From positions 62,001 to 126,000 of the forward strand of contig NZ_JALLPO010000024.1 in assembly GCF_023276435.1 (NCBI RefSeq): DNA of 64,000 bases. The letters are read 5' to 3'. Below the pieces are notes generated by a model, which was not told the origin of the DNA, did not search any database, and saw only the letters and a program-made list of their open reading frames with translations. The stretch is from Sphaerisporangium perillae (GTDB lineage: Bacteria > Actinomycetota > Actinomycetes > Streptosporangiales > Streptosporangiaceae). Shown here one piece after another: positions 34,160-53,947 of this stretch; the stretch's first letter is position 1; the number at the start of each line of letters is the position of its first letter. The translations under genes and the position numbers were made by a program.

Positions 34160-36553
34160 TCAGTCGCTCTGGGTTCTGGTGATGTCCCTCAGGCCGGGGG
34201 TGGCGATGTTGCGGACCGGGACGACCACCTGGCCACCCGTGGTCGTCGCCCAGACCTCGACCGCGTAGGGTGCGAGCTCGTGGCCCCTGTACTTGGGCCG
34301 TACCCCGAACCGGACGCTCTGTCCCGACTCCAGGGCGCGCCGCAGCGGGTTCTCGAACTGGACCTTATAGTCGGAGTTGTTGATCTTCTCGTGCATCCAT
34401 GCCAGGTTGCCGCGGTCGCGGCCCGAGCCGCCGAACAGGTTGCCGAGCAGGTGACCGCGCCGCGCGCCCAGCGGGTCGAGCTCGCCGGTCCGCAGGCCGA
34501 TCGGGTTGACGTCGCTCGACGACGGTGATCCGGTGTGCAGGTCCGCTGGGACCAGCTCGCCGGTCACACCCGTCGGCAGGCCGTTCTCCAGATCGCCCAC
34601 CAGCACCCGCTCGGAGATCGGCAGCGTCTCGTTCTCCGCCGGCTTGGCCGTCTTGGCGGCGGCGCCGGAATCTGAGCGCCGTCCCGGGGTACGTCCCGGG
34701 GTCGCGTCACGGCGCATGCCGCCGGACTCGAGGGCGCGTTCCTCGAGCGATGCGCCCCGATCGGCGCTCTTCATGGCTTCGGCGGCCCCCTCGCCTTCGG
34801 CGAACCGGCTGCGCGAGCCGGGACGGCGCGCTCCAAGCGGCCCCTCGGGCGCCGGCGTGGATCGCCGCGTGGCCGTCGCCTCGGGCCGTGCGGTCGTCGC
34901 TTTGGGCTGCGTGGTCGTGGCTTTGGGTGGGGCGGTCGTCGCTTTGGGCTGCGTGGTCGTGGCCTTGGGCGGGGTGGCAGTCGTGCCGGTGGGTGCCGGT
35001 TCGCTCGTCTTGGCCGTCGGCTTCGGTGTGCCGGTGGCGGGGGCCGTCTCGGCCGGCGATTTCGGCGTGACGCTCGTGGGTGCCGTCTCGGTCGGTGGTT
35101 TCGATGTGGTGCTCGTGGGGGCCGGTGAGGCCGTCTTGGGGGCGGGAGTGGGAGTCGCGGGAGTGGGCTGCGTCTTGGGGGCCGGGCCACCGGCGGGAGC
35201 GGGGCTGCGGGCGGGTGCGGAGCCGGGCGCGGAAGCGGGACCAGACGCGGAGGTGGAAGTGGGGGTGGAGGGGCGGGCCGCGCGGTCCACGGCGATGCTC
35301 GCGCCCAGTGGGACGGCGCTCATCAGGGCCGCCATGAACAGGCCCTTCGGATCGGTGAGCCGCTGCTCCAACTGGTCGGCGAAGCCCGCCCAAGTGACAT
35401 CGCGACCCCGTAAGGCGTCGACGGTCTGGTGTACCGCGACGGAGAACCCCTGCGACAGTTCGTGGGTCGTCACGCCGGCGGCGATCGAGGCGAACGCCTT
35501 GCGGGCGAGTGTCTGGGCGGCGGGATTCCCGGCCAGACGGCCGAAGATGGTGTGGCTGACCCGTCCGCCGACCCGGGCGAGCACCACCTGGACCGCCGCC
35601 TCCACCGCGATGGCCCCCCAGTCGACCTTCTCCCCGTACGCGGCCTTCACCGCTCCCACGCCGACCGTAGCGGCGATCGGGGCGCCGACCGAGATGGCGG
35701 TCGCCGTGCCGCTCACGCTGAGGCCGGCCACCCCGGTGCCGATGACCTCGGGCGCGAGCCCCAGTGCGGCGCCGCCCGACACCAAGACCGCCAGGACGCC
35801 GAGGGTGACGAAAGCGGCGTCCCTGGTGTATTCGAGCCCGGTCGCGAGGCTCTCACCACCCTCGATCAACTGGTCGACGTAGGCGCGCACCAGCATCGCC
35901 GACCGCTCGGAGGCCGCGTCCGCCTTGGCCAGATGGCCTGCGGCCTCGGTGAACGCGCCGGCCGTGATCGCGTGGCGGGCCGCGGCCGACTCCGCCGTCA
36001 AGGTGAATCGCAGAGCCTCCAGCGCGGTGCCGGGGTGGTCATAGCCGCCCCACGTGCGGACGTAGGCCCATGCCTTCACCGCGTGGGACGTGACCGGGAA
36101 GTCGGAGTTCACCTCCTCCTGGGCCCGGTAGCGGCCCATCGCGTCCTCGGACCGCCTGGCGCTCCGGTTCAGCGCCAGCGTCAGCGCCGTCCGGGCCGAG
36201 GCGCGTACGCGCTCCGCCTGCTCAGGGGTGAGCGTGATGACCTCGCCCCGGTAGGTGGTGCGCATGAGGGAGTCCGGGCCCATCGAGAGGCCCTCGATGG
36301 CAGCCATCACGGTCCGCGCCGCCGCCAGTCCGTCGCCGGGCGGCAGTGTCAGCTTCGCCAGGGCCTCCGTTCCGGCGCCCGTGCCGTGCCCGCCGACCAG
36401 GCCCGTGACCGCCTGGTTGCCGGCGACGGCCTGCGAGGCCAGCATCCCCTGGCCGGTGCCGCCCGGGCCGGCCCGCCTGGCCGCCGGTGGAGGCCGGACC
36501 GCTTCCGGTGACGGAGCGGGCCTGGAACGCAGATGACCGTCATGCCCGCCCAT
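34160..36553 (-). CDS. probable eCIS cargo protein with C-terminal DNA/RNA non-specific endonuclease domain
   Basis: The 797-residue protein starts at ATG 36553, chosen because its opening (HDGHLRSRPAPSPEA) then lines up with the neighbouring cargo; ATG 36610 lacks a ribosome binding site. Residues about 41-56 (QAVAGNQAVTGLVGGH) are shared with that cargo. A helical region with hydrophobic stretches (about 245-300) is followed by a Pro/Thr/Lys-rich linker of about 150 residues. The C-terminus (about 690-797) has ARRGHLLGNLFGGSG-DRGNLAWMHEKIN, as in the Endonuclease_NS_2 toxin domain with its catalytic His. As the last gene of the operon, it is probably a nuclease delivered or released by the injection system. 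Confidence 0.78.
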   Translation of the reverse strand: MGGHDGHLRSRPAPSPEAVRPPPAARRAGPGGTGQGMLASQAVAGNQAVTGLVGGHGTGAGTEALAKLTLPPGDGLAAARTVMAAIEGLSMGPDSLMRTTYRGEVITLTPEQAERVRASARTALTLALNRSARRSEDAMGRYRAQEEVNSDFPVTSHAVKAWAYVRTWGGYDHPGTALEALRFTLTAESAAARHAITAGAFTEAAGHLAKADAASERSAMLVRAYVDQLIEGGESLATGLEYTRDAAFVTLGVLAVLVSGGAALGLAPEVIGTGVAGLSVSGTATAISVGAPIAATVGVGAVKAAYGEKVDWGAIAVEAAVQVVLARVGGRVSHTIFGRLAGNPAAQTLARKAFASIAAGVTTHELSQGFSVAVHQTVDALRGRDVTWAGFADQLEQRLTDPKGLFMAALMSAVPLGASIAVDRAARPSTPTSTSASGPASAPGSAPARSPAPAGGPAPKTQPTPATPTPAPKTASPAPTSTTSKPPTETAPTSVTPKSPAETAPATGTPKPTAKTSEPAPTGTTATPPKATTTQPKATTAPPKATTTQPKATTARPEATATRRSTPAPEGPLGARRPGSRSRFAEGEGAAEAMKSADRGASLEERALESGGMRRDATPGRTPGRRSDSGAAAKTAKPAENETLPISERVLVGDLENGLPTGVTGELVPADLHTGSPSSSDVNPIGLRTGELDPLGARRGHLLGNLFGGSGRDRGNLAWMHEKINNSDYKVQFENPLRRALESGQSVRFGVRPKYRGHELAPYAVEVWATTTGGQVVVPVRNIATPGLRDITRTQSD
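34891..34973. repeat. two copies of a 42-bp tandem repeat in the cargo linker
   Basis: The unit beginning CGGTCGTCGCTTTGGGCTGC occurs at 34891 and again at 34933, identical but for a few bases. It encodes a repeated 14-residue Pro-Lys-Ala-Thr-rich block in the linker before the nuclease domain. Such repeats expand and contract easily and lengthen the flexible tether. Confidence 0.75.
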
Positions 36554-36633
36554 GACACGTCCCGGCAGTGGTGGGGAAGTAGACGGGCAGGCGGTGACGT
36601 CGAGGGGCATTGGGGAGGTGGGCGGCCATCGTG

Positions 36634-38976
36634 CTACTCGAAATCGACGATTTTGAGGATGACGATCGCGTCGGGGTCGTTCACCAGAATGCGCTTCGCG
36701 TGATCCATCGCCCGCTCTCCCGGTGCCCGGTCATATTCGATGTGGATGCGGCGGCCGTTCAGCTCGGTCTCGATGGTGAGCTGAAAGTCCGGGCGGTTCG
36801 TGCCCGCGCGCGTGGCGGCGGCACTGGTCTGAGTCTGGTCGACCCGTACGTCGGTGATCTGCATGTTCGTGTCTTTCAGAGCGTCCTTGGTGAGCCTGAA
36901 ATCGGCGTCGAGCTCGGCTGCCTGCAGCTTGCTGCGGCTCACCTTCCGGCCTTGTATCGGTAGCGCCTCCGGGGCGGGGCGACCAGGCGGGGGCGCCTTC
37001 GCGGGGACGAGCTCCGGGAAGTCGGCGCCGGTGAAAACGGTTCCGCTGTCCAGGACCAGATCGGGTACCCCGGCCTGCCTGGCCACCTCCCGGCTCTCCA
37101 GCAGCGCCGGCGACGGGGACAGGGCGGCCGGGTCGGCACGGTCCGTCGTGGGGCCGCGGCGCTCCTCCGGCACCATCGTCGCCGCCTCGTCCAGAGACTC
37201 CTGGACCTCTGCCTCGATCGACCTCTCCCGTCGCACCGGGGCCTCAGCGGCCTTGACGGGTTGGCCAGGGCGATGGCCGGCGGGATGGGGGCCGGGTTGG
37301 CCGGCCGGACGGCGGATCGTGTCCGGCATCGAGGTCTCCACCCGCTTGTAGCGGAATCCGGCACCGGTCCCCTCTGCCGTGGCGCCTCTCAGCGGGGCGC
37401 GTTCCAAGGGCCTCGACGCCTTCACCGGTCTCACGGGTTTCGCGGGTGCGGCCGGGTTCCGCGTCTGCGCGATGGTCGGCTGCGCCCCGATCGTCGTCGG
37501 GATGGTTTCGGAGCCGGCCGATGTCGCTGTGGTCTCGACACCGACCGGTGTCGCTGCGGCGTCGACGGCCGTGGGGTGGGGCGAGTTCGGGTGGAGCCTT
37601 CCTCGTTCGGCCGGCGCCGGGTGTGCGAGCTTCGCGCCGCCTCTGGCCACGGCCTCGCCGGCCTCCCGTTCGGCCGCGCCGAGCATTCGTTTGAGAAGGC
37701 GCTGCAACCGGGAGACGAATCGCTCCAACGGCTCGGCGATGGGCTTGAGCAACTTGCCCACGACGAGGCCGATCGCCGTCTCCACGATTTCGATCACCTT
37801 GCCGATCGCCACCACGGCCTCGCCGGCACGCGTGAGCAGCGGGGCGAGCCTCCCGAGGCCGGCTCCGATCTTGGTGAGGGCGTTGCCGACCCCGCTGGTG
37901 AACACGAACAGCAGCAGGTTGCTGACGACGCCGCCGATGACGTAGCCGAGGTTGTAGCCGATCTTCCTCCATTCGGTGTCGAACGCCGCTCTGCGCAGGC
38001 GGGTGGCCTTGGACATGATCACGCTGAGCACGCCCGCGTGTTCCTCGTCCGTACGGTTGGCGAGGATCGTGCCCACGCTCTCCTTGGGCCCGTCCGGCTC
38101 GTCCTTGCCGCTGACGTATCCGGCCACGCCCGCGGCCACCGACCGTCCGGCTCGCCCCGCCTCGGCCACCGCCCTGTCCTGTACTTCGTCCAGGAACTCC
38201 ATGACGGCCGCGACATCCTTCTTCTTCCAGATCTGGGCCAGCGTCTCCTCGATCCTGGCTCTCACTTCCGCCAAATCCTTGCTCAGCAGCTCAGCCTCGC
38301 CCGCCAGTCCGGCGACCTTGGCGTAGGCCGACGTGGCGAGTCCGGAGACGATCCGGGGGAGCTGCTCGGCCAGGGCACCGATGCCCAGCAGGTCCGTCAA
38401 CGGGCTGACGAAGCCCGCCGCCGCCCCGCCGGCATACCCCAGGAAGAAGTCGGCCGCGTTGCCGGGTACCAGCAGCTCCCTCAACGCGGAGCCCAGCCGC
38501 GACCGCTCCTTCTCGCCTCGCGTCTGCCGGCTCATCTCGGCGATGAATCCGCGTAACGCGGAGGCGAGCATCCGTTGCCCGACGCCGCTTCCCGCCGCGC
38601 CGCGGGTGACGGCTTCGACCACGAGGTCGCCCATGGCGCCGAGAGAGTCGTCGGGAACGGGGCGCGGCCTGTCCGGCGACGCGGCCGGAGTGGCCGGAGT
38701 GGCCGTGGAGGGTGCGGCAGGTCCGGCCGCATCGCCTCCGGCGTGCCCGCCGACCAGTGCCGTGACGGCCTGGTTGCCGGCAGTGGCCTGCAACGACGTC
38801 ACCGCCTGGCCGACGGTCCCGCCGCCGCCCGCCCCGCCCGGCGAAGATGTCCCGGCCCGGGCGGACGCCCCGGCATGTGCTGAGGCCCCGGCGTATGAGG
38901 ACGGCGCGGAGTGCCGGGCCGCCTCGCTGGAGGGAGCCGGTCCGGGTCGCTGGTGGTGTCTGTCCTGTTCACTCAC
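36634..38976 (-). CDS. second probable eCIS cargo protein with putative restriction-fold nuclease C-terminus
   Basis: This 780-residue protein opens with an Ala/Ser/Gly-rich stretch and residues 63-78 QATAGNQAVTALVGGH, nearly identical to the signature in the other cargo. A helical region includes one strongly hydrophobic segment (about 350-372, IGGVVSNLLLFVFTSGVG). A disordered Pro-rich part follows (about 465-640). The last 90 residues contain NRPDFQLTIETELNGRR, HIEYDRAPGE, then DHAKRILVNDPDAIVILK. The D...E-Y-D spacing resembles toxin-type PD-(D/E)XK nuclease domains; this is a by-eye inference. It sits between the coiled-coil gene and the first cargo gene on the same strand. Confidence 0.65.
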   Translation of the reverse strand: MSEQDRHHQRPGPAPSSEAARHSAPSSYAGASAHAGASARAGTSSPGGAGGGGTVGQAVTSLQATAGNQAVTALVGGHAGGDAAGPAAPSTATPATPAASPDRPRPVPDDSLGAMGDLVVEAVTRGAAGSGVGQRMLASALRGFIAEMSRQTRGEKERSRLGSALRELLVPGNAADFFLGYAGGAAAGFVSPLTDLLGIGALAEQLPRIVSGLATSAYAKVAGLAGEAELLSKDLAEVRARIEETLAQIWKKKDVAAVMEFLDEVQDRAVAEAGRAGRSVAAGVAGYVSGKDEPDGPKESVGTILANRTDEEHAGVLSVIMSKATRLRRAAFDTEWRKIGYNLGYVIGGVVSNLLLFVFTSGVGNALTKIGAGLGRLAPLLTRAGEAVVAIGKVIEIVETAIGLVVGKLLKPIAEPLERFVSRLQRLLKRMLGAAEREAGEAVARGGAKLAHPAPAERGRLHPNSPHPTAVDAAATPVGVETTATSAGSETIPTTIGAQPTIAQTRNPAAPAKPVRPVKASRPLERAPLRGATAEGTGAGFRYKRVETSMPDTIRRPAGQPGPHPAGHRPGQPVKAAEAPVRRERSIEAEVQESLDEAATMVPEERRGPTTDRADPAALSPSPALLESREVARQAGVPDLVLDSGTVFTGADFPELVPAKAPPPGRPAPEALPIQGRKVSRSKLQAAELDADFRLTKDALKDTNMQITDVRVDQTQTSAAATRAGTNRPDFQLTIETELNGRRIHIEYDRAPGERAMDHAKRILVNDPDAIVILKIVDFE

Positions 38977-39028
38977 GGGGCATCCCGCCGTCCACGAGTC
39001 CCGCCTGCCCGCTTTGCCGTGGTCTGTG

Positions 39029-39361
39029 CTAGGGCACGGTCAGTACGGCGGGCTGGTCGCCGGCCCCGTTCCGGTCGCCTGGTTCGTTCGCGGTCACGTT
39101 CCGTTCGGTGGGCTGGTCGCCGGTCCCGTTCCGGTCTCCGGCCACGCTCCGGTCGGCCCGGGTGGGGCCGGAACGCGCGCCGTCGCCGGCCTCGGCTGCG
39201 GTCAGTTCCTCCAGGACCTGGATGGCGCCGCTGATGCGCAGCAGCGTCTCGCGCAGGGCGGCCTCCTGTCTGGTGAGCTCACGCAACTGCCCTTCGCCCA
39301 GCTGGTACTCCCGCTTCAGTTCGGCCAGCCGGGCCTGCAACTGTTCGATCACGGCGATCAC
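39029..39361 (-). CDS. small coiled-coil protein of the eCIS cluster, function unknown
   Basis: The 110-residue protein starts at GTG 39361, 16 bases after the stop of a tail-fibre gene. The first 55 residues form a clear heptad coiled coil (VIEQLQARLAELKREYQLGE and onwards). The remainder is a low-complexity tail with the near repeat GDRNGTGDQP / GDRNGAGDQP. It lies exactly between structural and cargo genes. It may be a chaperone or adaptor for cargo or fibre, a suggestion from position only. Confidence 0.55.
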   Translation of the reverse strand: MIAVIEQLQARLAELKREYQLGEGQLRELTRQEAALRETLLRISGAIQVLEELTAAEAGDGARSGPTRADRSVAGDRNGTGDQPTERNVTANEPGDRNGAGDQPAVLTVP

Positions 39362-39377
39362 TTCCTCCGTCGTGTGG

Positions 39378-41552
39378 TCATCTCGGTTCGAGCCCGGGAT
39401 CCATGACGTTCATGGCTTCCGGCTGGTCGTACATCTCCGGGTGCAGGAGCAGGCCACGCTCGGCGGCCGGCTTGTCCTCCTCCACCACCATGCGGTTGGC
39501 CTCGGCCCACGGGTCCTGCCGGACGCCGGTCACCTGCCACGAGACCGTGACCCCGGGCTTGTCGGTGCAAATGGTGAAGGCGCCGTCCCGGACCTCCTCG
39601 CGTACCCACGTCAGGGCCGCCTGGCCGACGGGCGTCAGCTGGAAGCGGTGGTCTCGGTTGAGCGCCTCGAAGAAGCCGGGGAGGGTGATCTCGGCCTCGC
39701 CCCGCTCGTCGGTCACGGCCACGCCGGCGTACACGTTCAGCCGGTCCGGCGACTCGACGAACGAGTGCGACAGGTACTTGTTGTCCGGGTCGAGCGGATG
39801 GTCGATCCGGAAGCCGCCGCCGCCCTTGGAGAGCGTGCCGCGGACGTCGAGGTCGCCGTTGATCTGCACGCGGCCCAGGAACAGGCCCGCGGAGTTGCTG
39901 CCCGCCGCCATGATGCCGGTGCCGGTGCCCTCGACCCACGCGCCGATTGTGCCGGTCGCCCGTATGCCGGCCTGGAAGGCGCCGTTGCCGCCGCGCGCGG
40001 TGATGGCGGTGCCCCCGCTGACGACGTCGAGCGGGGTGGCCGGGGCCCTGGTGTTGATGCCGACGTTGTCCCCACCGTCGAAGGCCACGACGCCGCCGCC
40101 GCTGCGCACGAACAGGACCCCGCTGCCGGTGTCGCCGATCCGCGAACCCCACAGCGACAGCGTGGAGGGACCGTTCGGCTGCCCGTAGTCGCCGCCGAAC
40201 TGCAGCTCTCCGCTGTTGACGTGCATCCGCAGCGCCCATCCGATGCCGATGCCGAACAGTCCCACGTGGTCGTTGCCGGCCATCCCGACGAACGCGCGGT
40301 CGGCGTCCGGGTTGGCCTGCCGGAACCAGATGCCGGCCGATCCGTCGCCGCCCTGCCGTACGCGCATCCGGCGTGCCACATCGAGCCCGCCGCCCTCCCC
40401 GGTGGCGGAGACGCTGATCCGGTTGAAGTTGGACCACAAGTGCGCGGCGCCGTCCTGGGAGTACCAGACCCAGCGCTGTCCGGTGCCCGCGCCCGGTGTC
40501 TCGACGAAGCCGGCCACGTTGCGGTCGGCGAAGGAGTACCCGCCGGCGGTGCCGCCGCTGTGCACCTCCGTGCCTTCTACGTGCACGATTCGCTGTGCCG
40601 GCGCCGCGCCGATGCCCACGCCCAGCTTCCCGGACTTGTCGATCACAAGCCGGTCGGCGCGCGTGGTCGCGTCCGTCAGCCGCCACGTGCCGTCGGAGTT
40701 CGATGACAGCTGGTAGGCCGGGCCCGCCGGGGACGACAGCCGCAGGGGGGCCGACACCGACAGCGTCGAGGACACCGACAGCGTCGACACCCGGACCTCG
40801 CCGGTCGCTCCGGTGACCGCCAGGGCTTCGCGAGGCGCCGCCCCGGACAGCAAGGTCAGGGCGACGTTCCCGGTTGCGTCGGCGGTCAGTTCGGCCACCG
40901 GCCGGTCGTCGACGCCGGGCACGCCTCCGCCGGCCGTACGCGGCGCGCGCAGCTCCAGCCTGCCCGCGGGGACTCCCGCCGGGCGCCGGGCGCCCGCCGA
41001 CAGCCCGGTGACCCTGCCCTCGCCGTCTAGCACCACCCGGGCGAGCACCACCTGCCTGCCGTCGTCCTGGAATCCGGCCGCCGGGACGAGGCGCAGCCAA
41101 GGCGCGTGCAGCAGGGCGGGCGCGTTGGCCAGCGCGCTGTCGCCCAGCACCTCGCGCCAGGTGAGGGTGAGCAGGCTGTCGGCGCCCGCGCCGGCCGTGT
41201 CCAGGTTGAGCCCGTCGTCCCCCGCCAGGACGGTCGGCACGTCCTGGATCTGGGCCGGGTCGACGGTCTGATCGACGACGGCTGTGCCGCCCGGGGGCAG
41301 GACGATCAGCCGGCCGTCGGCGTCCAGGGCCGTACCCGGTGAGACCGTGACCCCCGTCTGACCTACGGTGGCGCGTACCGCCAGCCCGCCTGCGACCCCC
41401 CAGGAGTGCAGGCCGGCGTTGCGGGCCCGGTCCAGCGGCAGCAGGTAGGTCTCCATGTCGGTGAGACTCTCGCCGTGCCCGGTGGCTCCGTTGCGCACGG
41501 TGCCCGTACTGAGGTTCCAGTACTCGGTGCGCTTGACGCCGCTATCGCTCAT
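39378..41552 (-). CDS. eCIS tail-fibre-like protein (second of two paralogues)
   Basis: The 724-residue protein starts at ATG 41552, overlapping the stop of the preceding paralogue by four bases. The N-terminus (VKRTEYWNLSTGTVRNGATGHGESLTD) is shared with that paralogue and is probably the baseplate attachment part. The middle has phage-tail-spike style blocks (LGVGIGAAPAQRIVHVEG, GINTRAPATPLDVVSGG). The C-terminal third has FRIDHPLDPDNKYLSHSFVESPD, a module of phage tail fibres. It is likely a host- or surface-binding fibre of the particle (Afp13-like by role). Confidence 0.78.
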   Translation of the reverse strand: MSDSGVKRTEYWNLSTGTVRNGATGHGESLTDMETYLLPLDRARNAGLHSWGVAGGLAVRATVGQTGVTVSPGTALDADGRLIVLPPGGTAVVDQTVDPAQIQDVPTVLAGDDGLNLDTAGAGADSLLTLTWREVLGDSALANAPALLHAPWLRLVPAAGFQDDGRQVVLARVVLDGEGRVTGLSAGARRPAGVPAGRLELRAPRTAGGGVPGVDDRPVAELTADATGNVALTLLSGAAPREALAVTGATGEVRVSTLSVSSTLSVSAPLRLSSPAGPAYQLSSNSDGTWRLTDATTRADRLVIDKSGKLGVGIGAAPAQRIVHVEGTEVHSGGTAGGYSFADRNVAGFVETPGAGTGQRWVWYSQDGAAHLWSNFNRISVSATGEGGGLDVARRMRVRQGGDGSAGIWFRQANPDADRAFVGMAGNDHVGLFGIGIGWALRMHVNSGELQFGGDYGQPNGPSTLSLWGSRIGDTGSGVLFVRSGGGVVAFDGGDNVGINTRAPATPLDVVSGGTAITARGGNGAFQAGIRATGTIGAWVEGTGTGIMAAGSNSAGLFLGRVQINGDLDVRGTLSKGGGGFRIDHPLDPDNKYLSHSFVESPDRLNVYAGVAVTDERGEAEITLPGFFEALNRDHRFQLTPVGQAALTWVREEVRDGAFTICTDKPGVTVSWQVTGVRQDPWAEANRMVVEEDKPAAERGLLLHPEMYDQPEAMNVMDPGLEPR

Positions 41553-43681
41553 GCCGGCTCCATCATCGGGATCGCGGAGGGTCTCTTCTCGGTCTCGACC
41601 ACCAGCGGGTCGACGTCGGCCCTGACCGCCTTGACCTCCCAGCAGAAGCGCTGGGCGGGGTTGCGGCCGTCGGCGGCCAGCACGGTGAACCCGCCGCCGG
41701 CGACGGGGGTGGCGGCCAGCGCGCACACCGGCTCGTCCAGGTCCGACACCGGCGTGAGCAGCACCGTGCGGCCGTCGGCGCGGGCGAGGGCCTCGAAGTA
41801 GTCCGGCAGCGTCACCCGGGCGCGGCCACCGCTCAGCCGTCCCTCGCCCCGGTAGTAGACCGCCGCCTCCGGTCCCTCCACGCACGCGTGCGTGAGGACG
41901 CGGCCACCGGGGTCGAGCGGGTGGTCGATGGCGAACCGCTTGGTGCCGTCGTTGAGGAACTGGCACCTCGGGTGATCGGGATCCGTGCCGACGTACACCG
42001 CGCCTCGGGCGAACACGTCCCACGTGCCGATGCCGCCGCCGGACCAGTCGGGGTACCGCGGGACGTCGGGCCAATGGATGGTCATGTACATCCTGTCCGG
42101 ACCGGTGACGTTCAGCCGTGTCGTCGCGCTGACGACGTTGCCGTCGAGCAGGGTGAGCCCGCCGCCGGCCCGCACCGTGGAGGCCGTCGCGAGAGCGCCG
42201 CCGATCACCGTGTCGCCGCCGACCACGGCGTCGCCGGCGACGTGCAGGCTCGCACGCGTGGGACCGCCGATGTTGACCGACCCGGTCGCCACGTCCATCC
42301 GCAGCCCCCATCCGGCGCCGCCGTTGCCCCAGAAACCGACGTGCCCGTCATCGAGCATGCCGACGAACGCGCGGTCGGCCTGCGGGCCGGTCTGGAAGAG
42401 CCAGATCCCGGCGGAGCTGTCGCCGCCCTGCCGGACCCGCATCCGCCGGTACACGTCCAGGCCGCCGCCTTCACCGGGCGCGCCGATGGACAGCCGGTCC
42501 TGGCCGGACCACAGCCGGGCGGTGCCGCCGTGGGCGTACCAGACCCAGCGCTCGGCCGCGCCGGGCGTCTCCACGAAAGTGCGCACTGCCCGGTCCGCGA
42601 AGGAGAACCCGCCGCCGGGGCCGCCGCTGTGCACCTCCGACCCCTCGACGTGCAGCACGCGCACCGCCTTCGCCCCGCCGATGCTCACGTTGCCCGCGGT
42701 GTCGACCACGAGGCGGTCTCGTACGCGCAGGTCGCCCGCGATGGTGACGGTGCCCGTGTTGTCGACGGTGAGGCGGTCGCTCACACGCAGGTCGCCGGTG
42801 ATGGTGACGGTGCCGGCGGTGTCGACGGTGAGGCGGTCGCTCACCAGCAGGGCGCCGGAGATGTTGACGGCGCCGGTGGGCTCGACCGTGAAATGGTCGC
42901 GTACGCGCAGGTGCCCCACGACGATGATGTCGTCGGAGAACTGCACGGCGCCGGTGCCGAAGACCGACAGCGCGCGGCGCGGTGGCCCGGTGGGCGGGAG
43001 CATGTTCAGATCCACCCTGTCGTCCGCGCCGGCCACCAGCTCGGCGGCCGCGCCGTGGTCCACGCCGAGGGCATCACCGCGGGGCCGGCGCAGCTCCAGG
43101 CGTCCGGTGGGCGTGCTCGCCTGGCGCCGCACGCCTGGGCCCAGGGCGTCGACGACGCCGCCGGTGCCGAGCGTGACCTCGGCCAGCACCACCTGGTCGC
43201 CGACGTCGGGGAAGCCGGCCGCCGGGACCAGGCGCAGCCAGGGCGCGTGCAGCAGCACGGGCGCGTTCGGCAGCTCGAAGCCGGCCACCTCGCGCCAGGT
43301 CAGGGTCAGCAGGACGGCGCCGGTGAGGTCGGCGGAGTCCACGGTCACGCCGGTGGCGGTGACCGGGACCGTCGGGACGTTCTGCACCTCGTCCGGGTCC
43401 ACCGCGGGGTCGACGATCGCGACGCCGCCATCGGTGAGGACGATCAGGTTGCCCTCGGCGTCCAGCGCGGTGCCGAGGGACACCGTGACGCCGGCGGCCC
43501 CGGGCGTCGCCGTCACGCGGAGCCCGGCGGCCACGCCCCAGCCGTGCAGGCCCGAGTTGCGCAGCCGGTCCATCGGCATCAGGTGGCTCTCGATGTCGGT
43601 CAGGCTCTCGCCGTGCCCGGTCGCGCCGGAGCGTACGGTGTCGGCGCCGAGGTTCCAGTACTGAGTGCGTTTCACTGCCAT
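41549..43681 (-). CDS. eCIS tail-fibre-like protein (first of two paralogues) with 20-residue repeats
   Basis: The 710-residue protein begins at ATG 43681 behind GGGAGGAGG. It shares its N-terminal 200 residues and the IDHPLDPGGRVLTHACVEGP module with the next gene. Its shaft contains about four 20-residue repeats (LTVDTAGTVTITGDLRVSDR type, about residues 252-330) encoded by exact 60-bp DNA repeats, absent from the paralogue. Two fibres of different length could widen the target range or form a hetero-fibre. The stop overlaps the next gene's start (ATGA). Confidence 0.8.
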   Translation of the reverse strand: MAVKRTQYWNLGADTVRSGATGHGESLTDIESHLMPMDRLRNSGLHGWGVAAGLRVTATPGAAGVTVSLGTALDAEGNLIVLTDGGVAIVDPAVDPDEVQNVPTVPVTATGVTVDSADLTGAVLLTLTWREVAGFELPNAPVLLHAPWLRLVPAAGFPDVGDQVVLAEVTLGTGGVVDALGPGVRRQASTPTGRLELRRPRGDALGVDHGAAAELVAGADDRVDLNMLPPTGPPRRALSVFGTGAVQFSDDIIVVGHLRVRDHFTVEPTGAVNISGALLVSDRLTVDTAGTVTITGDLRVSDRLTVDNTGTVTIAGDLRVRDRLVVDTAGNVSIGGAKAVRVLHVEGSEVHSGGPGGGFSFADRAVRTFVETPGAAERWVWYAHGGTARLWSGQDRLSIGAPGEGGGLDVYRRMRVRQGGDSSAGIWLFQTGPQADRAFVGMLDDGHVGFWGNGGAGWGLRMDVATGSVNIGGPTRASLHVAGDAVVGGDTVIGGALATASTVRAGGGLTLLDGNVVSATTRLNVTGPDRMYMTIHWPDVPRYPDWSGGGIGTWDVFARGAVYVGTDPDHPRCQFLNDGTKRFAIDHPLDPGGRVLTHACVEGPEAAVYYRGEGRLSGGRARVTLPDYFEALARADGRTVLLTPVSDLDEPVCALAATPVAGGGFTVLAADGRNPAQRFCWEVKAVRADVDPLVVETEKRPSAIPMMEPA
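42691..42930. repeat. 60-bp tandem repeat array in the fibre gene (about four copies)
   Basis: Blocks such as GTCGACGGTGAGGCGGTCGC recur with a strict 60-base period at 42701, 42761, 42821 and, more diverged, 42881. The two central copies are nearly identical over the whole unit, while the outer ones differ more. The period equals 20 codons, so gain or loss of a unit keeps the frame and changes fibre length. Confidence 0.85.
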
Positions 43682-50790: not shown

Positions 50791-51792
50791 TCAGCCTCCC
50801 CGCTCGAACTCGGTGCGCAGCTGGCGCATCAGGTCGGCGATGAGGCCGCGGCGCAGTGCCTCGACGTCGAACGGCGGCTGCTGAGCGAGATCGCGGCCGA
50901 CCGGCGCCGTCATCGGGTGCGCCGCCGCGTGCGGCGCGATGGCCGGGGTGGGAGCGGGCGCGGCGGCCGGAGCGACGCCGGGATCGGGGAGCGCGGGCGG
51001 GCCGGCCGGGGGCGGCGCCGCACCCGGGCCGGGCGCGCGCAGATCGGGGTCGTCGCCCGAGCCGGGGGCGTGGCGGGCCGCCGACTCCCGTGCCAGCGCC
51101 GCCCGCTCCTCGGCGGCGACTCCGCCGGGCGCCGCGCGCCGCCAGGCACCGCCTGGGTCCAGCAGCGCGGTCACGTGGGTCGCCTCGTGGGCGAGCAGCC
51201 CGAAACCGGCCGGATCCCCGGGACGGAACCGGCCGTCGCGGAAGTAGACGTCGGCGCCCTGAGTCACGGCGTCGGCGCCGTGCGCCCGGGCGACGGTGTC
51301 GGCCGCCGCGTCGTCGTGGACGCGCAGCGCGTCGGCGCCCAGCCCGGCGACGCCGCGCAGGCGCGAGCGCACGCCGGACGGCAGGGCCCGTCCCGGGGCG
51401 GCGGCCGGGGCGCGCACCGGCTCCGCACCCGGGAACTCGGCCGGCGTCCGATCGCCCGAGGGGTCGTGCGCGGCGGGCGGCCCCGGGGGAGAGGCCTCAC
51501 CCGGGGATGCCGCGGAAGGGCCGGCGCCGGGCGCATCGCCCACCGGCACGCCGCGCACGATCTCGCCCTGCCGGCCGACAGGCGACTCCTGCCGTTCGAA
51601 CCGCCCGTCGAACGGCTCGGTCAGGCGCGTCACGTGCTCGAACACCCGCGCCAGCCCGCCGGCCCAGGGATAGGACGGCAGGTGACGTGCGGCCATCCGG
51701 CGGCCGGCCTCGTCGAGGCGCTCCCCGAGCGTCCCCGCCGGTGTGCCGTCGTCCGTCATCGTTCGCGCCACCCCCTCCACCTGCTCGTCCAT
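50791..51792 (-). CDS. DUF4157 (eCIS core) protein with HExxH motif
   Basis: This 333-residue protein has a Pro/Ala-rich N-terminal half. The conserved DUF4157 core lies at about 138-215: RSRLRGVAGLGADALRVHDD, a DVYFRDGRF strand and LLAHEATHV, with the metallopeptidase-like HEATH at 202-206. A Pro-rich tail ends in a helix. DUF4157 proteins are among the most constant eCIS accessory proteins; they have been suggested to act as proteases or cargo-linked factors. ATG 51792 behind GGACGGGACGG is used. No catalytic third ligand was assigned. Confidence 0.82.
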   Translation of the reverse strand: MDEQVEGVARTMTDDGTPAGTLGERLDEAGRRMAARHLPSYPWAGGLARVFEHVTRLTEPFDGRFERQESPVGRQGEIVRGVPVGDAPGAGPSAASPGEASPPGPPAAHDPSGDRTPAEFPGAEPVRAPAAAPGRALPSGVRSRLRGVAGLGADALRVHDDAAADTVARAHGADAVTQGADVYFRDGRFRPGDPAGFGLLAHEATHVTALLDPGGAWRRAAPGGVAAEERAALARESAARHAPGSGDDPDLRAPGPGAAPPPAGPPALPDPGVAPAAAPAPTPAIAPHAAAHPMTAPVGRDLAQQPPFDVEALRRGLIADLMRQLRTEFERGG

Positions 51793-51832
51793 TTCCGTCC
51801 CGTCCTGCCGCGGCCGGCGTCGGGTCCGCGCC

Positions 51833-52045
51833 TCACCCGCCGCCCCGCTCGCGTTCGAGCTGGCTCGCGACCTCCCGCACCCAGCGCCGCCGCTGGGCGT
51901 GGTCGAGGTTCAGCACCTCGGTAAGGGTCCAGTGCACATGTCTTCCGAGGAAGGCCGCCTCCTGGTGGACCCGGTCCAGGGGGTAGCCCGCTATCCCCCC
52001 AGCGGCGGCACCTCCAGCTCCTGGCGGCGGCCACAGTGCGGGCAC
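51833..52045 (-). CDS. DUF6760-type extension frame, probably made by -1 frameshift from the upstream gene
   Basis: The conserved part (GYPLDRVHQEAAFLGRHVHW, then LDHAQRRRWVREVASQLE) matches the short DUF6760 proteins found between tube and later genes of actinomycete eCIS clusters. The frame is open from 52045 (a GTG deep inside the upstream gene). The homologous part begins only at about 51994, at an ATA codon without a usable start. That point is exactly where a -1 slip at G-GGG-GGA would enter this frame. I therefore read it as the C-terminal extension of the 120-residue chaperone-like protein, giving a fusion of about 173 residues. An internal GTG start at 52045 is the alternative. Confidence 0.6.
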   Translation of the reverse strand: MPALWPPPGAGGAAAGGIAGYPLDRVHQEAAFLGRHVHWTLTEVLNLDHAQRRRWVREVASQLERERGGG

Positions 52046-52353
52046 TCCGCCGTGAGCGTCCGCGGGCTCAGGCCGTTGACGCGGTTGTAGAGGTCCTGCA
52101 GGTAGGCCAGATCCGCGGAGAACAGCCCTTCGATGACCCCGGGATTGACCTCCTCCAGGCCGCCGAGCTTGATCACCACCCGGGAGAGCAGGATGACGAT
52201 CAGGTAGGCGGGCAGGTTCCGCACCCGTGGATCGTTGAGCGGGTAGATCTCGTCGGCGGCCGTCGCCAGCCGCATCACGCCCGTGCGGTGGAGGTTGCCC
52301 TCCGCGTCCACGTACCCCTTCGGCAGCTCGAACTCGACCTCGGTGACCAGCAC
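51991..52353 (-). CDS. tail-assembly-chaperone-like protein (P2 gpE/Mu gp41-like)
   Basis: The 120-residue protein starts at GTG 52353, two bases after the tube gene stop. Its sequence (FELPKGYVDAEGNLHRTGVM, RLATAADEIYPLNDPRV, NLPAYLIVILLSRVV) resembles the phage tail assembly proteins encoded between tube and tape-measure genes. A C-terminal CPHC pair (about 104-107) might bind a metal with partners elsewhere. The stop TAG at 51993-51991 directly follows GGGGGGA. The shift into -1 would add the DUF6760 segment, as in the E/E+E' pair of P2. Confidence 0.75.
   Translation of the reverse strand: MLVTEVEFELPKGYVDAEGNLHRTGVMRLATAADEIYPLNDPRVRNLPAYLIVILLSRVVIKLGGLEEVNPGVIEGLFSADLAYLQDLYNRVNGLSPRTLTAECPHCGRRQELEVPPLGG
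51994..52015 (-). promoter_or_regulatory. programmed -1 ribosomal frameshift site (slippery G-GGG-GGA with upstream SD-like stimulator)
   Basis: Read on the minus strand the zero frame is CTG GGG GGA TAG, with the heptamer at 52000-51994 fitting X-XXY-YYZ. A Shine-Dalgarno-like GGAGG (52015-52011) ends exactly 10 bases before it, the spacing known to stimulate the dnaX frameshift. A short hairpin (TGGAC-N3-GTCCA, 51966-51978) lies 15 bases downstream. All elements are visible in the sequence; function is inferred. Confidence 0.6.
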
Positions 52354-52355
52354 GC

Positions 52356-52796
52356 TCAGACCCGCGTCAGTCCCTCGTGCGCGAGCACGAGGGTGTCGAT
52401 GGCGATGTCGCCGCCTTTGGCGCTGAACGCGGGGCCCTCCCACTTGGTCGGCCAGGCGCGGAAGAAGTTCCACCGGGCCACCTCGGCGCTGTTGGCCAGG
52501 TCGAACACGACGATCGAGCCGTTCTTGCGCACGACCAGGCCGTCGGCGATCTGCTGGCGCCACTCCCACAGCTCGGTGGAGGCGGTCAGGCCCCACTTCA
52601 GGGAGATGTCGGAGAAGCTGGTCTTGCCGGGCAGCTTGCGCACCGTCACGTTGTCGCCGCCCTCGCGGTTCTCGATCACCTCTGTGGTGGAGCCGAGCCC
52701 GCTGCACTCGGTGAAGCTCGCCTGGGCGATGCCGTCGAGCTCCACCAGGAAGTTGAAATTGCGGAAGGGATCGACGCGCTGTCCTGTCTGAGCCAT
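52356..52796 (-). CDS. eCIS inner tube protein (gp19/Hcp-like, Afp1-like)
   Basis: The 146-residue protein (ATG 52796) has the full tube-protein pattern: DPFRNFNFLVELDGIAQASF, ECSGLGSTTEVIENREGG, RKLPGKTSFSDISLKWG and WEWRQQIADG. It polymerises into the channel inside the sheath. Only one tube gene is present, whereas Afp has two or three variants. It is directly upstream of the chaperone-like gene. Confidence 0.92.
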   Translation of the reverse strand: MAQTGQRVDPFRNFNFLVELDGIAQASFTECSGLGSTTEVIENREGGDNVTVRKLPGKTSFSDISLKWGLTASTELWEWRQQIADGLVVRKNGSIVVFDLANSAEVARWNFFRAWPTKWEGPAFSAKGGDIAIDTLVLAHEGLTRV

Positions 52797-52810: not shown

Positions 52811-53947
52811 CTAACCTTCGCTGATCCGCGCGCCGCCGTCCCACAGGCCGATGCGCAGCACGACGTATTCGGCCGGACGGGTGGGGGCCACCCCGATCTC
52901 GACGATGACCTGGCCGAGGCCGCGCACCGCCGGAGGGTTGAGCTCCTCGGTGATGCGCACGTAGAACGCCTCCTTGGCGGTGGCGCCGAACAGCGCGCCC
53001 GCCTCCCAGACCCGGGTCAAGAACTCGGTGATCGAGCGTTCCAGGCCCTTCCACAACGCGGTGTTGTTGGGCGCGAAGACCGCCCAGCGGACGCCCTGGA
53101 CGATCGAGTCCTCGATGTAGGACACCAGCCGCCGCACGTTGACGTACCGCCACTGCGTCCCGTCGGTCAGGGTGCGGGCGCCCCAGACCAGGGGCGGGCG
53201 CCCGGGGAAGCGGCGGATGGCGTTGATCCCGGCCTTGTTCAGCGCCCCCTGCTCGGCGTCGTTGAGCGCGTACTCCAGGTCGACCGCACCTCGTACGGTC
53301 TCGTTGGCCGGCGCCTTGTGCACCCCGACGGAGCCGTCGCAGCGCGCCATCACGCCGGCGACATGCCCGGAGGGTGGGACGGTGACGGTCGCCGAGGTGC
53401 CGGGCCGCGCGGTGGGATCGGGGATCACGATCCACGGCCAGTACAGCGCCCCGAAGCCGTTGGCGGACTTCAGGCCGCCGCGCTGCTTCTGCAGGGCGCC
53501 GTCGGCCTTGAGCGGCGTGGTGTCCTGCGCGCCGTCGAGCACGGCGAACCGGTCGCCCATCGTCTCGCAGTGCGCGAGCACCTTCGCCTGGACGGTGGGG
53601 TCGACGACGCCGGGCAGGCAGACCATGCTGACGTCGGCCAGCCGGGTCAGCGCGTCGAGCGCGCCGTCCACCCCGCCGTTGTCCTTGATCGGCACGACGT
53701 ACGCGAACGTCCCGCCGTTCTCCAGGAAACCCCGCACCGCGTACGGCAGGTTCAGCGACGCCTTGTAACCGCCGAAGGCGTCGGTGTACGCGGTCCAGTT
53801 GGTGATCGCCACCGGCTTGCCGAGGGCGCTGTCGGCCGCGGCGACCCCGATGAGGGCCGGGACGCTGGTGCCCGCGCCCGTGATGGGCCCGGCCGGCGTG
53901 ATCTCCTCGATGTAGACGCCCGGCGCCTTGGACTCATAGTCGATCAT
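52811..53947 (-). CDS. eCIS contractile sheath protein (Afp2-4-like)
   Basis: The 378-residue protein starts APGVYIEEITPAGPITGAGTSVPALIG, the standard opening of CIS sheath proteins. It ends with the conserved domain containing RRLVSYIEDSIVQGVRWAVFAPN, the F-VRITEELNPPAV region and VAPTRPAEYVVLRI. A single sheath gene is present. It is 14 bases upstream of the tube gene on the same strand. Its size is near the short end for eCIS sheaths. Confidence 0.92.
   Translation of the reverse strand: MIDYESKAPGVYIEEITPAGPITGAGTSVPALIGVAAADSALGKPVAITNWTAYTDAFGGYKASLNLPYAVRGFLENGGTFAYVVPIKDNGGVDGALDALTRLADVSMVCLPGVVDPTVQAKVLAHCETMGDRFAVLDGAQDTTPLKADGALQKQRGGLKSANGFGALYWPWIVIPDPTARPGTSATVTVPPSGHVAGVMARCDGSVGVHKAPANETVRGAVDLEYALNDAEQGALNKAGINAIRRFPGRPPLVWGARTLTDGTQWRYVNVRRLVSYIEDSIVQGVRWAVFAPNNTALWKGLERSITEFLTRVWEAGALFGATAKEAFYVRITEELNPPAVRGLGQVIVEIGVAPTRPAEYVVLRIGLWDGGARISEG

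What the first reader, a model, noticed from the sequence alone, without database searches (positions are those of the whole stretch)
51833..52353. P2-E/E'-like programmed -1 frameshift inside an eCIS operon
Directly after sheath and tube comes a tail-assembly-chaperone-like gene whose last codons are CTG GGG GGA TAG. The heptamer G-GGG-GGA fits the -1 slippery rule, and GGAGG lies exactly 10 bases upstream, as in the dnaX stimulator. The -1 frame enters the conserved DUF6760 segment, which has no plausible start codon of its own (it begins at ATA). Phage P2 makes E and E+E' by a -1 shift in the same gene position (FI sheath, FII tube, E, E'). I know of no description of this in contractile injection systems. 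It would mean DUF6760 'proteins' are often the shifted C-terminus of a chaperone.
Basis: partly seen in the sequence, partly recalled or inferred. Interest (0 to 1): 0.88.

Follow-up and report, generated by a model that had tools for sequence, protein, structure and literature searches.

The report
Frameshifted assembly chaperone in contractile injection systems
A bacterial "syringe" gene cluster very probably keeps the old phage trick of making one assembly helper in two lengths by letting the ribosome slip back one base, and the same slip signal is found in related clusters across many bacterial groups and in archaea.

Summary
On the minus strand of an eCIS cluster, a tail-assembly-chaperone gene ends CTG GGG GGA TAG. 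DUF6760 follows in the -1 frame with no start codon after the heptamer, and GGAGG lies 10 nt upstream.

Comparison makes a strong case for programmed -1 frameshifting. DUF6760 is in the -1 frame in 137 of 140 loci with a chaperone hit. Of 66 non-redundant loci, 63 are in this phase, and 55 of those carry GGGGGAN, GGGGGGN or TTTTTTA at the junction; 29 of the 55 have no start codon in the next six codons. Synonymous recoding gives a GGGGG heptamer in 7.3±2.6 loci against 54 observed. A covarying hairpin follows in 36 of 55, but in 1 of 11 loci without the heptamer. GGGGGAA is the motif of about a thousand annotated actinophage chaperone frameshifts.

The P2 analogy looks like remote homology: chaperone ~ gpE, DUF6760 ~ gpE'.

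Limits: the window's own hairpin is weak. In 26 of 55 a start codon also follows, and some actinobacterial lineages have an ATGA start instead. No protein evidence exists here.

The parts
51991..52353 (-). Tail assembly chaperone (gpE-like), 0-frame ORF, GTG start, TAG stop; 120 aa
   Evidence: PHROG 508 tail assembly chaperone E=0.0011 (30 of 30 aligned members match at E<=0.1, best 6.7e-11); AF2 pLDDT 87; first PDB match HK97 tail assembly chaperone 2ob9, prob 0.87, E 0.15, no match below E 0.001
51994..52000 (-). Slippery heptamer G GGG GGA (-1 slip GGG->GGG, GGA->GGG)
   Evidence: position and register conserved
52011..52015 (-). SD-like GGAGG, 10 nt upstream of the heptamer (putative stimulator)
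   Evidence: spacer 10-11 nt enriched in relatives, 18 of 55 vs 9.6±1.7
51833..51994 (-). -1-frame extension with DUF6760 domain (gpE'-like), 53 codons and TGA; no start codon between heptamer and domain
   Evidence: AF2 three-helix domain pLDDT 90; PF06528 touches 18 of 31 aligned members, not the window member
51952..51989 (-). Downstream hairpin, 4 nt after the heptamer; imperfect in this genome
   Evidence: z 0.78, not stronger than shuffles; strong and covarying in relatives
52356..52796 (-). Tail tube protein (T4 gp19 type), directly upstream
   Evidence: PF06841 E=1.2e-43, PHROG 4542 tail tube E=2e-14, translation
52811..53947 (-). Tail sheath
   Evidence: PF04984 E=4.2e-22
50791..51792 (-). 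eCIS_core domain protein downstream
   Evidence: PF13699 E=3.1e-18

Best explanation
The chaperone gene is decoded in two ways. Most ribosomes stop at TAG and give the 120-aa chaperone (gpE-like). A fraction, held up by the downstream hairpin and helped by the upstream SD-like element, slip one base back on G GGG GGA and continue into DUF6760, giving a fusion of about 173 aa (gpE+E'-like). As in P2 and lambda (recalled model), the two forms are inferred to act together in tail assembly: the chaperone coats a tape-measure-like client while the DUF6760 helices recruit tube subunits. Shown here by computation: frame, heptamer, conservation, hairpin covariation in relatives, remote similarity of both parts to P2 E and E'. 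Inferred: that slippage happens, its rate, which product prevails, and the roles of the two products.
For: DUF6760 in -1 frame in 137 of 140 loci with a chaperone hit, and in 3 of 3 extra loci. 55 of 63 non-redundant -1 loci have the junction heptamer; synonymous null 7.3±2.6 vs 54 observed for GGGGG. 29 of 55 have no ATG/GTG/TTG in six codons after it. The first post-slip codon encodes I/V/M in 50 of 55, although in the 0 frame the codon after the heptamer is a stop in 14 of 55 and a sense codon in the rest. Hairpin: synonymous z mean -1.77 in 55 heptamer loci vs -0.32 in 11 without (p=0.0014); covariation score reached by 0/500 shuffles in both hairpin classes; the third base of the Leu/Ser codon on one arm tracks a Glu/Gln change on the other, p=0.0002. 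Other solutions at the same place: T TTT TTA in L030 and L148, one in-frame single-ORF fusion (L014). GGGGGAA is the 'fivetwo' motif of annotated actinophage chaperone frameshifts. P2 and Mu records carry annotated -1 and -2 shifts in the same gene position; DUF6760 profile vs P2 E' hhalign P=1.2e-7.
Against: No protein or reporter data. The window's own hairpin is not stronger than shuffles (synonymous z +2.1), and with the heptamer included an alternative fold pairs G6 with the C-run. 26 of 55 heptamer loci also have a start codon within six codons. Some lineages use ATGA with no heptamer (L123, L126, L127, L130, L131); in the wider phylum sample only 12 of 22 new matches carry the heptamer. 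In two of five pair-count measures class A did not beat its shuffles (pairs with double change 207/500, further pair types 144/500). GGGGGAN is not strict X XXY YYZ. L117 and L146 lack a qualifying heptamer. The title of a paper seen only in a reference list says T4-like phages make their chaperones by another route than frameshifting, so a split form is a real option for such genes.
Confidence: 0.91

Rival explanations
1. Termination-reinitiation: ribosomes finishing the chaperone restart on a nearby GTG/ATG or non-standard codon and make DUF6760 as a separate protein, the G-run serving as its SD sequence.
For: GTGA or ATGA overlaps in many actinomycete loci, and in heptamer-free lineages such as L123, L127, L130, L131; record annotations list DUF6760 as a separate CDS; T4-like phages are said, in a title seen only in a reference list, to use a route other than frameshifting for their chaperones.
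Against: 29 of 55 heptamer loci have no start codon in six codons, the window included. Where a start follows directly, the G-run sits 0-4 nt from it. The first codon after the heptamer is conserved as I/V/M in 50 of 55. The 'start' follows the stop choice: N|TGA gives NTG while N|TAA or N|TAG gives NTA (inference). None of the seven non-redundant -1 loci that rely on their own start (L054, L123, L124, L127, L130, L131, L136) has hairpin z below -1.5. In Rhodococcus (L139) the annotated start lies inside the domain (with sequence).
Confidence: 0.06
2. Both routes operate in GTGA/ATGA lineages: frameshift fusion plus a free DUF6760 by coupled initiation; the window itself has only the frameshift route.
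For: 26 of 55 loci have heptamer and start codon together; hairpin z is somewhat weaker there (mean -1.49 vs -2.02).
Against: In class B the GTG lies at the foot of the stem, and the start codon is not conserved across the family.
Confidence: 0.2
3. Transcriptional slippage on the G-run, or a sequencing/assembly error, explains the frame change.
For: Homopolymer at the junction.
Against: Runs of 5-7 G are short for transcriptional slippage (general knowledge); same frame relation in finished and draft genomes from many phyla; a hairpin in the RNA after the site fits ribosomal slippage.
Confidence: 0.02

Closest known systems
Phage P2 gpE / gpE+E' tail assembly chaperone with -1 frameshift (AF063097)
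   Same: Sheath-tube-chaperone order; -1 shift near the end of the chaperone gene; 0-frame protein in the PF10109 sphere and extension in the PF06528 sphere by remote similarity
   Different: Cellular eCIS cluster, not a phage; G-run heptamer; conserved hairpin in relatives; CPxC motif in the chaperone; next gene is not a tape measure
Actinophage tail assembly chaperone frameshifts with GGGGGAA (PRFect 'fivetwo' motif, PMC10885494, section 26 read)
   Same: Identical heptamer and register (GAA tRNA rebinding GGA) in many actinomycete relatives
   Different: Window itself has GGGGGGA; host machine is eCIS
Phage Mu gp41 / FS-gp41, annotated -2 shift (AF083977)
   Same: Same position; the eCIS chaperone model matches FS-gp41 in BFVD at rank 12, TMq 0.52; L117 has a GGGGCGA similar to the Mu sequence
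   Different: -2 instead of -1
dnaX -1 frameshift (recalled)
   Same: SD-like element about 10 nt upstream, heptamer, hairpin downstream
   Different: Different gene, heptamer and purpose
Cis6/Alg6 spike plug (PMC8894135 and PMC8894136, passages read)
   Same: Small gene near the same place in eCIS clusters
   Different: No contractile-system chain among the PDB sequence hits shown for DUF6760 (3 of 3, 60 of 163); not the same protein as far as this shows

Membership tests
Phage-type tail assembly chaperone with programmed frameshift | Gene follows sheath and tube | tested here: met
   Sheath PF04984; tube PF06841 E=1.2e-43
Phage-type tail assembly chaperone with programmed frameshift | 0-frame product related to TAC families | tested here: met
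   PHROG 508 in 30 of 30; PF10109 in 5 of 30 at E<=0.1, best 3.1e-4, not the window protein; HK97 chaperone first in PDB at prob 0.87, E 0.15. Remote, below curated cut-offs
Phage-type tail assembly chaperone with programmed frameshift | Extension related to P2 E' (PF06528) | tested here: met
   18 of 31 members match, best E 0.0011; the window member itself only matches PF20546; hhalign with P2 E' prob 94. Remote
Phage-type tail assembly chaperone with programmed frameshift | Slippery heptamer in register within the ORF overlap | tested here: met
Phage-type tail assembly chaperone with programmed frameshift | Two products made in a fixed ratio | not testable with these tools
   Needs proteomics or a reporter
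Phage-type tail assembly chaperone with programmed frameshift | Tape-measure client in the same cluster | tested here: inconclusive
   No tape-measure Pfam match among the cluster ORFs scanned; long minus-strand ORFs at 36634-43681 have no Pfam match at E<=0.01. Tape-measure-like effectors are reported for actinobacterial CIS (PMC13277306, abstract and passages)
Three-part bacterial -1 stimulator set (SD, heptamer, hairpin) | Stable downstream hairpin | tested here: inconclusive
   Met in the family; weak in the window
DUF6760 (PF20546) | Score over the curated cut-off | tested here: met
   30.9 bits vs 27

The most novel reading that the evidence does not exclude
An ancient frameshift cassette (heptamer, hairpin, E'-type domain) inherited from a phage tail is kept as a cellular recoding element in contractile injection systems of many bacterial phyla and of archaea. 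Lineages that leave recoding, by in-frame fusion or by an ATGA start, lose heptamer and hairpin together. It may be among the most widely spread cellular -1 frameshifts besides dnaX and could couple machine assembly to the state of translation.
Probability: 0.5. Interest if true: 0.87.

Novelty: new variant of a known kind. Interest (0 to 1): 0.8.

Why it matters
It gives an identity and a way of expression to DUF6760, which records list as a stand-alone protein, sometimes truncated or missed. It says that many eCIS, a class of machine now being engineered for protein delivery, may need an assembly chaperone made in two forms from one gene; rebuilding a cluster from annotated ORFs could lose the fusion. 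It also gives a natural comparison of recoded, fused and split forms of one gene.

Tried and rejected
Internal start at GTG 52045: rejected, since the -1 frame is closed a few nt upstream of the junction in L040, L041 and L052. DUF6760 as the Cis6/Alg6 plug: no sequence support among the PDB hits shown. A zinc site shared by CPxC of the chaperone and HxH of DUF6760: dropped, because HxH stays where CPxC is lost (L127, L128, L130, L131). Rfam: no match at 51500-52500 up to E 1. My own slip: the tube gene was given one base out of frame, so its 'no family' there means nothing; the right frame is.

Literature: searches for DUF6760 (0 papers), contractile injection system + frameshift + chaperone (11), eCIS + tail assembly chaperone (1), eCIS + frameshift (27 papers, 20 listed), contractile injection system + ribosomal frameshift (2), phage tail assembly protein + extracellular contractile injection (0). 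I saw listings of these and term searches in nine papers (PMC8894135, PMC8894136, PMC10066040, PMC10020575, PMC11566945, PMC12998442, PMC8718954, PMC13277306, PMC13222765; PMC12998442 gave no passage). None of what I saw describes this. PMC13222765 holds the words only in a cited title on T4-like phage chaperones made without frameshifting (Virology 2022), a paper I could not read. Subscription papers and preprints were not searchable, so novelty is a statement about this library only.

HMM-based samples are less biased: 31 of 33 matches from the order, but only 12 of 22 new matches from the wider phylum. Of 34 plasmid records with a match, 9 were fetched. Non-redundant loci are still related by descent, so p-values are guides. 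Two loci without a chaperone HMM hit (L125, L140) were left out of the phase count. Heptamers of L124 and L136, counted among '57 with any heptamer', look spurious and are not in the 55. Hairpin classes were assigned by a rule on the 5' arm; five of 55 loci fit neither class, L020 and L133 were dropped from the class B alignment and L008 was moved to it by hand.

Full report
What is there. The window's minus strand carries an eCIS cluster: sheath, T4 gp19-type tube, eCIS_core, CIS_tube with LysM, Phage_base_V, gp25, Baseplate_J, Tail_P2_I, Pvc16_N and AAA genes. Between the tube and the eCIS_core gene lies a 120-aa ORF (52353-51991) ending CTG GGG GGA TAG. DUF6760 continues in the -1 frame from ATA 51994 to TGA 51833 with no start codon between the heptamer (52000-51994) and the domain; GGAGG lies 10 nt upstream.

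What the two parts are. The ORF has no Pfam family over a cut-off but matches PHROG 508, tail assembly chaperone (E=0.0011; 30 of 30 aligned members, best 6.7e-11). Its AlphaFold model (pLDDT 87) has the HK97 tail assembly chaperone as first PDB match (prob 0.87, E 0.15, nothing below 0.001) and Mu FS-gp41 at rank 12 in the viral library; several of the higher viral ranks are named T4-like baseplate hub assembly or baseplate proteins. Five of 30 members touch PF10109, the family of P2 gpE. DUF6760 members touch PF06528, the family of the P2 E' extension (18 of 31, best E 0.0011), and their profile aligns with P2 E' (prob 94, P 1.2e-7). These similarities are remote, but both halves point to the matching halves of P2. 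A contractile Bordetella phage bridges the two: its chaperone is PF10109 (1.3e-12), it has T TTT TTG in register, and its -1 frame, unannotated in the record, matches a DUF6760 model of 12 relatives at E 8.2e-5 and a model of the other 141 loci at E 0.0013 (the 7.9e-10 came from a model that held it), and PF06528 at 0.0087.

Phase and heptamer. In 142 loci from whole genomes, genome contigs, plasmids and one phage, 140 have a chaperone hit upstream and 137 place DUF6760 in -1. The three exceptions are an in-frame single-ORF fusion (L014), a same-frame pair split by a stop (L128) and a draft genome with a T7 run (L132). Three further loci are all -1. At 80% identity 66 loci remain, 63 in -1; 55 carry GGGGGAN, GGGGGGN or TTTTTTA at the junction. 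Among all loci, the heptamer occurs in records titled as Actinomycetota, Chloroflexota, Cyanobacteriota, Myxococcota, Nitrospirota, Planctomycetota, Pseudomonadota, Acidobacteriota, Bacillota and Methanoperedens-type archaeal bins. Recoding the chaperone end with local codon usage gives GGGGG heptamers in 7.3±2.6 of 63, against 54. Three cyanobacterial loci at 42% GC (L067, L138, L142) use GCG or TCG, codon endings expected at 3-10%, before GGG. GGGGGAA, the commonest form (31), is reported as the sole 'fivetwo' motif in about a thousand annotated actinophage chaperone frameshifts (PMC10885494, section 26 read).

Start codons. Of the 55, 29 have no ATG, GTG or TTG in the six codons after the heptamer. 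In most of the rest the GTG or ATG overlaps the chaperone's TGA. The first codon after the slip is I, V or M in 50 of 55, although in the 0 frame the codon after the heptamer is a stop in 14 and a sense codon, often serine, in the others. This argues that the -1 frame is read from the heptamer on.

Stimulators. SD-like tetramers 10-11 nt upstream occur in 18 of 55 against 9.6±1.7; at 15-18 nt there is no excess (12 vs 12.2). The larger surprise is a hairpin starting a few nt after the heptamer. Two classes use different sequences: GGCTACC...GGTAGCC in most phyla sampled and GTGACGTACGCG...CGCGTACGTCGC in mostly actinomycete loci. Synonymous z is -1.77 on average (36 of 55 below -1.5). Covariation score and double-change cells exceed all of 500 shuffles in both classes, though two lesser measures in class A do not. 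Eleven non-redundant loci without the heptamer average -0.32, one below -1.5; that one, L117, has no start codon and a GGGGCGA resembling the Mu sequence. In the window the hairpin is imperfect and no stronger than shuffles, so its role there is uncertain.

Exceptions. Deep actinobacterial lineages (L123, L127, L130, L131) have an ATGA start, no heptamer, no strong hairpin, and chaperones without CPxC. A two-domain chaperone lineage uses T TTT TTA (L030, L148), T TTC TTG (L146) or the in-frame fusion L014. The family thus shows recoded, fused and split forms.

Mechanism and limits. I take the gene to make chaperone and chaperone-DUF6760 fusion by -1 frameshifting, as P2 makes E and E+E'. By the phage model (recalled) the chaperone would bind a tape-measure-like client and the extension the tube. 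Streptomyces CIS clusters are said to lack a typical tape measure (PMC10066040, passage), but tape-measure-like effectors are reported for actinobacterial CIS (PMC13277306, abstract and passages); those are candidate clients. No slippage was measured. In GTGA/ATGA lineages a free DUF6760 may also be made.

Noticed in passing
L140 2241-2626 (Bordetella phage vB_BbrM_PBb002): Chaperone with T TTT TTG and an unannotated -1 E'-like frame before the tape measure gene.
   Followed up: partly
L014, L030, L146, L148: Chaperone ORF with two tandem chaperone-like domains; L014 is fused in frame to DUF6760 and has no hairpin.
   Followed up: partly
L123, L124, L127, L128, L130, L131: Chaperones without CPxC, mostly with long charged tails, go with ATG/GTG-started DUF6760 and no G-run heptamer.
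   Followed up: partly
L139 2528-2671; L142 2501-2650: Annotation artefacts: DUF6760 called from a TTG inside the domain in Rhodococcus, and not called at all in Brasilonema.
   Followed up: yes
window 36634-43681, minus strand: Long ORFs without Pfam match in the eCIS cluster (36634-38976, 39378-42311, 41549-43681; the last two overlap, so not all need be genes); possible tape-measure-like, fibre or effector genes.
   Followed up: no
window 34160-36610, minus strand: C-terminal DNA/RNA non-specific endonuclease domain (PF13930) at the edge of the eCIS cluster, a possible cargo.
   Followed up: no
L117, L121: GGGGCGA / GGGGGGGCGA at the junction, resembling the Mu sequence.
   Followed up: partly
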